Positions 28,925-31,616 of a stretch of DNA of 64,000 nt are shown piece after piece. Every line of letters starts with the position of its first letter. The first letter of the stretch is position 1. The notes under the pieces are model-generated. The model did not search any database. It saw only the letters and a program-made list of their open reading frames with translations, and was not told the DNA's origin. The translations under genes and the position numbers were made by a program. Origin of the DNA: Gentiana macrophylla (taxonomy: Eukaryota; Streptophyta; Magnoliopsida; Gentianales; Gentianaceae); NCBI GenBank assembly GCA_026214975.1, contig JAOBSW010000644.1, positions 248,001-312,000 of the forward strand, written 5' to 3'.

Positions 28925-29015
28925 GGGTTAATTAGTTAAAAATATAGTTTTTTATACTTATTAGCCCCATAAGGACATAAAGGAATCTGTTGGATTTATA
29001 AGGACACATATTATT
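28925..29015 (+). repeat. Left TIR of the Pack-MULE
   Basis: Aligns to the reverse complement of about 31527-31616. The best block contains GGAATCTGTTGGATTTATAA on the left against GAATCTTTTGGACTTATAA on the right. Confidence 0.75.
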
Positions 29016-29097
29016 CAGCTTACCTAATTTACCCTCCATTTAAATCCATTAATGGCTTTTTCTCTCTGAAAATTAGCAGAAACGAGCCGTCCCATAC

Positions 29098-30117
29098 ATG
29101 AGAGGAGGACGCGCCGGTGTGCAGGTCGACAGCCTCCTTCTTCTTCTTCTTCTACTTCTCGTCTCGACCGGTGTTGATGGCGGAGCTGATGGCGAGTTCA
29201 CCGGAGACTATTCCAAGCTCTCGGGGATTATTATTCCAGGTTTCGCGTCCACTCAACTGAGAGCTTGGTCAATCGATGTTGAATCATCTGTTTCCTCCAC
29301 CAACACCTCGGCCGCCGCCGTTAATGAGAATAACACGAATCATAAGCCACTGGAACTCAAACAGCCACTGGATCTCAACCATTTGATTTCCAACCTCTAC
29401 CTCGAAGATTCCGATCAAGACCGATCTCCTGATGTTACCCCTGTTTCTATTGCTGCTCCACCGGCTAAGATTATCGTGCTCGTTTTCGCGATGGTATTCC
29501 GTAATTTTGTTGATCCTGAACGAAAACGGGCTGCGATTGCAGCTAGTTGGAATTTGGGGGCTTCAAGCAAGTCTGTGGTCTCTCCAATGTTGTTAAAATC
29601 TGGAAAGCGGGTGGGAGAAGCTAGGTCTTGTCCCATTAATTTTACTTCACCTGATGCTATTCCCTCTTCTCAGGTTTTGATTACTCCGGCTGCTTCTGAC
29701 CCTCCTTTGAAGCATCTTGAGATTAATACTGCATCAAAATCTGTTTTTATGCCTGTATTAAATTCTTATGTTGATAAGGCACGCTCTGTTTGTGGCATTG
29801 CCTCAGTTTCAGTTGGTTGTTTGGTTACGAATTTGATTAGTGTACCTGTTGTTGTTCCTACAGCCATAGACTTGGTTACCCCTGATTTGGAATCGATTGC
29901 TTCACAGCCTGATACTACTTTGTTGAAGCATGTTGTTGCTGTTAATTATAATCCTGTAACTCAGGTTTTGGATTCCCCTGCTGCCCCTGTTGTTGGTATT
30001 GGTTTGGTTGCTGATATTGTCAAGGGCTGTGATGTTGCAGCTAATGTGGATGTCTCTTTTAAGGGTAATGGTATAGCTAGTGATGTTGGGGCTAATATTA
30101 CTGTGTTTTGCTATTAG
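29098..30117 (+). CDS. Chimeric ORF: PSAT1-like N-terminus fused to unrelated sequence
   Basis: 339 codons, one exon, ATG at 29098 and TAG at 30115. Residues 1-30 form a signal peptide with a poly-Leu core (SLLLLLLLLLVS). Residues 34-58 (EFTGDYSKLSG, then IPGFASTQLRAWSI) match the first conserved block of plant phospholipid-sterol acyltransferase (PSAT1, LCAT family), an enzyme that esterifies sterols at the ER. The match stops after AWSI at about 29273, where PSAT1 continues LDCPY. The rest is S/V/P-rich and unrecognised. The catalytic Ser-Asp-His residues of LCAT enzymes are absent, so acyltransferase activity is excluded. It lies 173 bp inside a Mutator-like element, so it is a captured fragment. 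If expressed it would be secreted or ER-directed. Confidence 0.7.
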   Translation: MRGGRAGVQVDSLLLLLLLLLVSTGVDGGADGEFTGDYSKLSGIIIPGFASTQLRAWSIDVESSVSSTNTSAAAVNENNTNHKPLELKQPLDLNHLISNLYLEDSDQDRSPDVTPVSIAAPPAKIIVLVFAMVFRNFVDPERKRAAIAASWNLGASSKSVVSPMLLKSGKRVGEARSCPINFTSPDAIPSSQVLITPAASDPPLKHLEINTASKSVFMPVLNSYVDKARSVCGIASVSVGCLVTNLISVPVVVPTAIDLVTPDLESIASQPDTTLLKHVVAVNYNPVTQVLDSPAAPVVGIGLVADIVKGCDVAANVDVSFKGNGIASDVGANITVFCY

Positions 30118-30258
30118 AAGAAGCAAAACAACAAGAATTGCACCGATTCTTGAGACGAACAAGCTATTTTGCTCGACATTCCCTACTTTCCCAACTACTG
30201 TCATGATAAAAAAAAAACATTCTGAACATGTACATGTTTGTGTGTTTTGTCTCATCGC

Positions 30259-30651
30259 CTATGTTGCACGGACACCGACACGGACACGGCGCGCAGCATT
30301 TATTACTACGACGGACACGGCGACACGGCAACTTTCAAAAATATAGGACACGACACGCCGGGGACACGTAGTATATATATATATATATATATATATATAC
30401 AAAAAAAATATAAAAAAATATAAATAGCCGTGTCGGAACGTGTCCCCCCGTGTCCGGGACGTGTCGCTCCGTGTCCTTGCCGTGTCTCTGGCGTGTCGCG
30501 GACGTGTCCCTGGCGTGTCGGTTTTAAAATTTAATTTAACATTATTTTAAATCAACCGACACGTGTCCGACACCGTGTCGGACGCGTGTCGTGTCGGGCG
30601 CGTGTCGGATACGGCGCACGTTACCCATATTGGAGTGTCGGTGCAACATAG
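30259..30651. mobile_element. hAT-like MITE built of CGTGTC words, inside the MULE
   Basis: Ends CTATGTTGCACGGACACC (30259) and, from the right, CTATGTTGCACCGACAC (30651). Flanks CTCATCGC and CTCATCAG match at six of eight bases. The interior is dense in CGTGTC/GACACG and holds an (AT)n tract at 30371-30399. CTATGTTGC termini occur in a widespread plant hAT-type MITE family. It inserted after the MULE formed. Confidence 0.7.
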
Positions 30652-30709
30652 CTCATCAGGCTGTTGGAAAATTTTCCACTACTTCTATGTGCTTCTTTCT
30701 TCGGTGGTC

Positions 30710-31312
30710 ACTGCAGATGTCACTGTATACATTAGGCAATTAATGAAGTGACATTGATGTCACTGCAGATGTCACTGCATATATTAGACAACTAATGAAG
30801 TGACATTAATGTCACTGCATGATGTCACTGCATAACTCTATATAATACGACGCCATCGCGATCATGTCATCGCATTGATGTCATCAGATGACGCCATCGT
30901 GATAATGCATAAATCTATACAATAAGACGTCACTGCATAAATCGATACCATAAAACGTCACTGCATAAATCGATATAATAAGACGTCATTGTAAGACGTC
31001 ACTGCATAAATCGATACCATAAGGCGTCACGGCATAAATTGATACATTATGATGTCACTACATAAATCGATACAATATGACGTCACTTCATCGAGGTGTC
31101 TCTGCAATGCGGCGTCTCTGCATCGCGGTGTCAGTTCATCACGGTGTCTCTGCATCGTGATGGTCATCGCATCGGGCGTCACGGTGCATCAGGATGGTCA
31201 TTGCATCGCGGTGGTCAATGAATCAGGGTGGTCAATGCATCGCGGTGGTCATTGAATCGCGGTGGTCAATGTATCGGGGGTGGCCATTGTATCGCGATGG
31301 TCAATACATCGG
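30710..31312. repeat. Composite minisatellite with changing unit length
   Basis: Three adjoining blocks are visible. At 30710-30840, ~60-bp units contain GATGTCACTGCA and AATGAAGTGACAT. At 30840-31095, ~30-bp units have the form GACGTCACTGCATAAATCGA plus TACAATAA. At 31095-31312, ~18-bp units have the form CATCGCGGTGGTCAATG. A GTCA/CATCG core runs through all three. Confidence 0.7.
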
Positions 31313-31534
31313 TTATTTTATAATTTATAAAAAAAAATAATAAAAAAAAAACCTGTACAGCGCCATAATTAAATTAAAAATAAAAAATAAAATAAAAAAA
31401 AACTGAACAGTGCCTTTATTTTTATAAAAAATAATTTTTTTAAAAAAAACATTACCAATACGCCAGTTTTTTTATTTCCTTTTTATTTTGTTCTTTTTCT
31501 TCATTAAAGGTATTTGAGTCTATCTATCTAATTT
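31313..31534. repeat. Low-complexity A/T tract
   Basis: Runs of A and T with two related inserts (CTGTACAGCGCC at about 31354 and CTGAACAGTGCC at about 31402). No coding potential. Confidence 0.6.
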
Positions 31535-31616
31535 GTGTCCTTATAAGTCCAAAAGATTCATTTTTGTCCTTATAAGTCCAACAAGTCCGTTTTTTGTACT
31601 TTTGAGTCTTTGGCCC
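31535..31616 (+). repeat. Right TIR of the Pack-MULE
   Basis: Inverted partner of 28925-29015. It contains two local copies of TGTCCTTATAAGTCCAA (near 31537 and 31565). Followed directly by TATAAGAAA. Confidence 0.75.

What the first reader, a model, noticed from the sequence alone, without database searches (positions are those of the whole stretch)
28925..31616. Pack-MULE with a perfect 9-bp TSD carrying a PSAT1-derived secreted chimeric ORF
TATAAGAAA occurs immediately outside both ends, and the ends are inverted repeats with GGG termini, so the unit is a Mutator-like element. Its only ORF starts with a signal peptide and the first conserved block of phospholipid-sterol acyltransferase, then switches at one point (about 29273) to unrelated sequence and stays open for 339 codons. 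Gene-fragment capture by MULEs is known in plants, but this chimera and its donor are not known to me. The open frame despite old TIRs hints at constraint.
Basis: partly seen in the sequence, partly recalled or inferred. Interest (0 to 1): 0.85.

Follow-up and report, generated by a model that had tools for sequence, protein, structure and literature searches.

The report
Gene-capturing plant transposon with fused reading frame
A jumping DNA element in a plant genome carries the copied front end of a lipid-enzyme gene fused to part of another mobile element; it is a clear but ordinary case of a known process, and its long open reading frame shows no sign of being kept by selection.

Summary
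An element at 28925-31616 (2692 bp, GGG...CCC) is flanked by TATAAGAAA on both sides; of 23,332 GGG/CCC pairs 0.5-6 kb apart in the window it alone has an exact flanking 9-mer. It carries a 339-codon chimeric ORF starting with PSAT1 residues 1-59. The window's own genome (1.79 Gb) held the answers. The parental PSAT1 gene is on C7 (L020); the captured part is 29050-29274 (48 nt 5'UTR, 177 nt coding). Fourteen other loci with the same left end were fetched; 11 carry PSAT1 exon 1, in two forms with different breakpoints. Most of the 'unrelated' tail comes from the N-terminal linker of a DUF4283 LINE-type ORF1 family. So this is a Pack-MULE family with several captured pieces. The hint of constraint fails: the two ends differ in every copy tested, so their 83% match is not an age; the PSAT1 part differs from its parent by 3 substitutions and one in-frame triplet; dN/dS against the only other intact copy found is 0.89 (tail 1.13; interval 0.35-2.2); 2 of 12 PSAT1-bearing copies keep the long frame. 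New member of a known kind; expression and small RNAs untested.

The parts
28916..28924 (.). left copy of the 9-bp target site duplication TATAAGAAA
28925..31616 (+). Pack-MULE, 2692 bp, GGG...CCC
28925..29013 (+). left terminal repeat; 58-bp core 28956-29013
   Evidence: same left end in 14 other loci of the genome
29014..29049 (+). MULE subterminal leader, outside the PSAT1 match
   Evidence: alignment of 12 copies with the parent
29050..29274 (+). captured PSAT1 fragment: 48 nt of 5'UTR and 177 nt of exon 1 (residues 1-59)
   Evidence: parental gene L020 contiguous across both joints; further exons in order in L020
29098..30117 (+). 339-codon chimeric ORF; intact also in L009 (338 aa)
29275..29346 (+). 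segment A (DVESSVSSTNTSAAAVNENNTNHK), shared with 8 other copies, donor not found
29347..29424 (+). segment A2 (about ELKQPLDLNHLISNLYLEDSDQDR), shared with L009, L012, L010, L013; donor not found; borders approximate
   Evidence: GC3 change point at 29404
29425..30099 (+). piece of the N-terminal linker of a DUF4283 LINE-type ORF1; borders approximate
29475..29502 (+). -1 and -2 indels relative to L009 that change about 10 residues and restore the frame
   Evidence: the L009-like reading is also in L010, L012, L013, L026
30257..30651 (.). nested 395-bp element with 17-nt inverted ends; CTCATC on both sides; absent at the same site in L009, L012, L018
30707..31311 (.). internal tandem arrays (52-, 28-, 16/17-bp units), related arrays in other copies
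31529..31616 (-). right terminal repeat; core 31529-31586
31617..31625 (.). right copy of the target site duplication TATAAGAAA

Best explanation
A non-autonomous Mutator-like element (Pack-MULE), moved by a transposase supplied in trans (inferred from the class). Its family copied the 5' end of the host PSAT1 gene between its terminal repeats (shown by the parental gene), joined it to a short piece of unknown origin (segment A) and, in the window's lineage, to a stretch most of which comes from a DUF4283 LINE-type retroelement family (shown by related loci; the exact donor copy was not found). The pieces are in frame, giving a 339-codon ORF with the PSAT1 start codon and signal-peptide region. 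The ORF is open because the copy is young, not because it is maintained (inferred from near-neutral dN/dS). If transcribed it would more likely feed siRNA against the family, and perhaps touch PSAT1 in trans, than make a useful protein (inference, untested).
For: TSD and inverted ends. Right ends located in 12 of the 14 other copies; exact 9-bp TSDs at L011, L012, L016, L019, L024, L025, with 8/9 at L014 and L021, 9/10 at L023, 8/8 at L018 and L022, and an uninformative (TAA)n site at L009. Parent PSAT1 in L020 with six matched stretches in order. Captured coding part differs from the parent by 3 substitutions (2 synonymous) and one 3-nt insertion. Tail matches L026 and L027 in two blocks each (53% and 48%; 53% and 64%) upstream of DUF4283 (PF14111 E 7e-28 and 8e-30); reverse transcriptase RVT_1 (E 4.5e-15) about 3.3 kb downstream of the L026 ORF on the same strand. 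dN/dS 0.89. No purifying signal in private changes of 12 copies. Long frame in 2 of 12 PSAT1-bearing copies. Simulated chance of no stop at 1-2% neutral change 0.76-0.58, and of no frameshift 0.44-0.20 under an assumed indel rate.
Against: The pairwise dN/dS interval is wide (0.35-2.2), so weak constraint is not excluded. In the PSAT1 part alone window against L009 gives omega 0.18, on 3 differences. Changes against the parent summed over 11 copies are 35 synonymous to 30 nonsynonymous against 1:2.7 expected, which looks like constraint but counts shared changes repeatedly and includes the parent's own. The private count leans on two divergent copies, L018 and L022 (26 of 41 changes); without them it is 2 synonymous, 12 nonsynonymous, 1 stop, still not below neutrality. 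Two copies keep the frame, and in the window two indels cancel. The strong triplet periodicity of the tail (22.9 against a window 99th percentile of 9.1) fits coding descent and does not separate past from present coding. No transposase partner was identified. The 58-bp core is shorter than the 100-500 bp given as typical of MULEs (PMC3310237, passages seen).
Confidence: 0.93

Rival explanations
1. The chimeric ORF is a new host gene under purifying selection: a secreted protein made of the PSAT1 signal peptide and a novel tail.
For: Open for 339 codons; 0 of 2000 shuffles of the tail are stop-free; frame kept in L009; all 16 residues invariant in the core of 49 PSAT1 proteins are kept; omega 0.18 in the PSAT1 part, on 3 differences.
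Against: dN/dS 0.89, tail 1.13; private changes at the neutral ratio; parent distance so small that an intact frame is not surprising; 10 of 12 PSAT1-bearing copies have lost or never had the long frame; the tail is mostly LINE linker and matches no Pfam family.
Confidence: 0.05
2. The element acts on its parent gene: sense or antisense transcripts of the PSAT1-bearing copies (12 seen) make small RNAs that tune PSAT1 in trans.
For: 225 nt nearly identical to the PSAT1 5'UTR and exon 1; three copies hold about 1.5-2.0 kb of PSAT1 at 97.2-98.3%; a potential of Pack-MULEs to regulate parental genes is mentioned in PMC3310237 (passage seen).
Against: No expression or small RNA data were available here.
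Confidence: 0.15
3. A broken native PSAT1 gene with a transposon in exon 1, not a captured fragment.
For: The ORF begins like PSAT1 with its own 5'UTR.
Against: No further PSAT1 exon found in 64 kb; a PSAT1 gene with exons in order is elsewhere (L020); the fragment lies inside inverted ends and a TSD and recurs in 11 other copies.
Confidence: 0.01

Closest known systems
Pack-MULEs of rice, maize, Arabidopsis, tomato (e.g. tomato PM-ZIBP family, PMC3310237, passages seen)
   Same: 9-bp TSD, terminal inverted repeats, host gene fragment inside, several copies with one repeat family and different fates
   Different: Cargo here is PSAT1 exon 1 plus a LINE-derived piece; the same gene is present in two forms with different breakpoints; the matching core of the two ends is short
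Pack-TYPE elements with genic material from several loci (PMC8903248, passages seen)
   Same: One element holds DNA of more than one source
   Different: One of the sources here is itself a retroelement family, and the joints are in frame
maize Bs1 (described in PMC13317346, passages seen)
   Same: Chimeric ORF built from several captured pieces by a mobile element
   Different: Bs1 is a retrotransposon, reported there as transcribed and translated; nothing of the kind is known here

Membership tests
Mutator-like element (MULE) | 9-11 bp target site duplication | tested here: met
   9/9 in the window; exact 9 bp in L011, L012, L016, L019, L024, L025, near-exact or 8 bp in 5 more, uninformative in 1, right end not found in 2
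Mutator-like element (MULE) | long terminal inverted repeats (typically 100-500 bp) | tested here: inconclusive
   inverted ends with GGG and a 58-bp core at 83%; shorter than typical
Mutator-like element (MULE) | mobilised by a MURA-type transposase of an autonomous relative with the same ends | not tested
   genome searches for the ends did not complete
Pack-MULE | captured host gene fragment inside, parent elsewhere in the genome | tested here: met
   parent L020; both joints seen
Pack-MULE | non-autonomous, no transposase | tested here: met
   no other stop-to-stop frame above 118 aa in the element; no Pfam family in the ORF
PSAT1 enzyme | LCAT-type domain (PF02450) | tested here: not met
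   only residues 1-59 present; no PF02450 match
DUF4283 LINE-type ORF1 as source of most of the tail | DUF4283 downstream of the matching linker, reverse transcriptase further downstream | tested here: met
   DUF4283 in L026 and L027; RVT_1 downstream of L026 only; none among the two L029 frames tested downstream of L027
functional new gene | dN/dS clearly below 1 | tested here: not met
   0.89 overall, 1.13 tail, interval 0.35-2.2

The most novel reading that the evidence does not exclude
A family of MULEs has twice taken the start of the same lipid-metabolism gene and, in one lineage, fused it in frame to a retroelement's ORF1 linker, giving a translated, secreted chimeric protein or a trans-acting silencer of PSAT1.
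Probability: 0.12. Interest if true: 0.55.

Novelty: new member of a known kind. Interest (0 to 1): 0.3.

Why it matters
It is an unusually legible case of stepwise cargo assembly by a Pack-MULE family: parent gene, two forms of the captured gene with different breakpoints, copies with and without the LINE-derived piece, and empty sites for a later nested insertion all survive in one genome. It also shows a trap: two dissimilar ends plus an open frame look like constraint, yet copies elsewhere in the genome show that the ends differ in every copy tested and that the captured part is young.

Tried and rejected
Protein database searches for the tail found nothing; the search needs shared 5-residue words and the linker is variable. 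Pfam on the ORF and its pieces (only a sub-threshold peptide-hormone match at E 0.15 in residues 30-41) and PDB sequence searches with the whole ORF (none), residues 1-59 (one hit at E 1.6) and a NOMO exon (none) gave nothing useful. That the tail came from a DUF4283 protein was first a recalled resemblance; it was accepted only. End divergence as a clock was computed (2.3 expected stops) and then rejected. Structure prediction: the one job failed, the next was not accepted, and it was not tried again. Counting all copies by their ends, and looking for the donor of segment A, failed because the genome search was busy; (tail DNA) also did not complete. The sum of changes against the parent (35 synonymous, 30 nonsynonymous over 11 copies) was replaced by the private-change count because it counts shared changes many times. 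Right ends of L015 and L028 were not found in the stretches fetched. The host species was not identified. Paper searches were seen as listings with the starts of abstracts only; one search ('Mutator-like' with 'sterol acyltransferase') found 0 papers, which is only that one search.

Full report
Observation. TATAAGAAA stands at 28916-28924 and 31617-31625, and the element between runs from GGG at 28925 to CCC at 31616. As a control, all 23,332 pairs of GGG and downstream CCC 0.5-6 kb apart in the window were checked for an exact 9-mer on both outer sides: one pair, this one, has it. The inverted ends share a 58-bp core at 83%. The ORF 29098-30117 has 339 codons. Its first 59 residues match plant PSAT1 (49 database proteins; all 16 core columns invariant in them are kept). 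No other PSAT1 exon was found in the window.

The genome. After several unanswered tries one search of the window's own genome succeeded. The genome has 1.79 Gb in 1264 contigs; the window is C1142:248001-312000. The ORF has 44 matches there, itself included, among 69 scored candidates; such counts are lower bounds. One other is full length and open (C4, L002/L009, 92% identity, 338 aa).

The parent. L020 on C7 holds PSAT1 exons in order (six stretches matching P0001, residues 34-383, where the fetched locus ends). Exon 1 runs on as ...LRAWSI-LDCPYSPLDFNPLDLVWLDTTK, then an intron. The window matches it from 29050 to 29274 and at neither side beyond. So 48 nt of 5'UTR and 177 nt of coding sequence were taken. 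Differences from the parent in the coding part: 2 synonymous and 1 nonsynonymous substitution and one in-frame 3-nt insertion near the leucine run.

The family. Fourteen other loci have the same left end, GGGTTAATTA.TTAAAA. Right ends were located in 12 of the 14. TSDs are exact over 9 bp at L011, L012, L016, L019, L024, L025; 8 of 9 at L014 and L021; 9 of 10 at L023; 8 of 8 at L018 and L022; L009 sits in a TAA microsatellite and is uninformative. Most of these sites are A- and T-rich, so each was tested: the score was reached at 5 to 29 of 2000 random positions of the same locus (1 of 2000 for the window). L018's right end is the weakest match. L022 and L025 have the same flanks and are probably one insertion later duplicated. 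Right ends of L015 and L028 were not found in what was fetched.

Cargo. Twelve copies carry PSAT1 exon 1, the window included. Nine (group I: window, L009, L012, L015, L016, L018, L019, L022, L025) share the 3' joint ...TCAATC-GATGTTGA and segment A, and PSAT1 5'UTR, shortened in four of them by a deletion that takes the start codon. Three (group II: L021, L023, L024) lack that 5'UTR, join at the ATG, and run on through introns to L020 position 954: about 1.98 kb in L021 and L024 at 97.2-97.5%, and two blocks of 1221 and 240 bp in L023 at 97.6-98.3%. Group I cannot simply descend from group II, because it has PSAT1 5'UTR that group II lacks, so two captures are the simplest reading. Against it: one synonymous difference separates the parent from all copies, as a single capture would give, though so would a change in the parent. 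Retained introns show capture of DNA, not of mRNA. Three further copies with the same left end (L011, L014, L028) carry a tail piece without PSAT1. L010 and L017 carry tail pieces between inverted repeats of another sequence (35 bp at 80%, 60 bp at 82%), although 60-80 bp near one end resemble the window's right end; their TSDs were not tested.

The tail. Its triplet periodicity is 22.9, against a 99th percentile of 9.1 for windows of equal length in the 64 kb, so it descends from coding sequence. Residues from about 110 on match, in two blocks, the region upstream of DUF4283 in L026 (53%, 48%) and L027 (53%, 64%); the ORFs there hit PF14111 with E 7e-28 and 8e-30. About 3.3 kb downstream of the L026 ORF, on the same strand, lies a reverse transcriptase (RVT_1, E 4.5e-15); the two frames tested in the 4 kb fetched downstream of L027 showed none. 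This is the layout of a plant LINE with a DUF4283 ORF1 (the name LINE is from general knowledge and the order of domains, not from a call). L026 and L027 are relatives (about 76% in DNA), not the direct donor. Residues 60-84 (segment A) and about 85-109 (A2) have no donor yet. A change in third-position GC at 29404 (10 of 1000 permutations reach it within the tail) agrees with a joint near there. Copies L016, L019, L022 and L025 continue after segment A into another, unidentified sequence, so the window's lineage seems to have joined A2 and the LINE piece at about 29347.

Constraint. The repeats are not a clock: in the 12 other copies with both ends located, left ends match the window's left end at 78-98% over 110-113 bp and right ends its right end at 84-95% over 96-110 bp, while a copy's own two ends align over only 24-82 bp at 76-92% (window 58 bp, 83%). 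The two ends were different before the family spread. Window against L009 gives 7.7 synonymous and 20.3 nonsynonymous differences, omega 0.89; the PSAT1 part 0.18 on 3 differences, the tail 1.13. The binomial test against neutrality gives p 0.67, interval 0.35-2.2. Private changes in the PSAT1 part of 12 copies are 12 synonymous, 28 nonsynonymous and 1 stop, p 0.73 against neutrality; 26 of these 41 lie in L018 and L022, which have indels, and without them the count is 2, 12 and 1. With 1-2% neutral change the chance of no stop in the ORF is 0.76-0.58, and of no frameshift 0.44-0.20 if indels are a tenth as frequent as substitutions (assumed). The window copy has -1 and -2 indels relative to L009 26 nt apart, which replace about ten residues and restore the frame. 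Long frames survive in 2 of 12 copies; of the other ten, four lost the start codon region, the rest stop at 32-97 residues (group II copies carry introns, so a long frame is not expected there). Weak constraint cannot be excluded, but nothing calls for it.

Setting. On the minus strand the window holds a NOMO gene (PF23660, E 1.5e-18 at 43292-43753). Its last exon, found with a recalled plant NOMO peptide as probe, ends with a stop at 31933-31935, 317 bp from the right end of the element, so the ORF and NOMO run towards each other. None of four polyadenylation-like hexamers was found on the NOMO strand between its stop and the element; the nearest are AATAAA inside the element at 31487, 31476 and 31420, so the element may supply NOMO's 3' end, a guess only.

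Literature. Pack-MULEs with 9-11 bp TSDs, gene fragments and new open reading frames are described in PMC3310237 (passages seen); elements with material from several loci in PMC8903248 (passages seen); over 3,000 rice Pack-MULEs with some chimeric transcripts in PMC13317346 (passages seen). PSAT1 capture was not found in the one search made for it. The finding is a new member of a known kind.

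Noticed in passing
31933 to at least 43753, minus strand: NOMO-like gene; the MULE lies 317 bp 3' of its stop codon and may supply its polyadenylation signals. Retroelement-like frames lie between its exons (by eye); further NOMO-like frames up to about 54979 were not tested.
   Followed up: partly
30257-30651: Nested 395-bp element with inverted ends CTATGTTGCACGGACAC and many CGTGTC units; empty sites in L009, L012, L018.
   Followed up: partly
L016, L019, L022, L025: Copies of the family carry about 2.2 kb of another sequence after segment A (151-aa open frame in L019, no Pfam match above cut-off).
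   Followed up: partly
L010 2911-5100; L017 654-3145: Elements with other inverted ends carry tail pieces like the window's, so two groups of elements may share cargo; TSDs not tested.
   Followed up: partly
7511-8992 and 4270-4962: ORF of 493 codons with Transposase_32 (PF20167, E 4.1e-27), near an ORF with integrase domains (H2C2 and rve).
   Followed up: no
32200-32500 and 55027-55407: Similar translated text in a NOMO intron and near 55 kb, perhaps a dispersed repeat (by eye).
   Followed up: no
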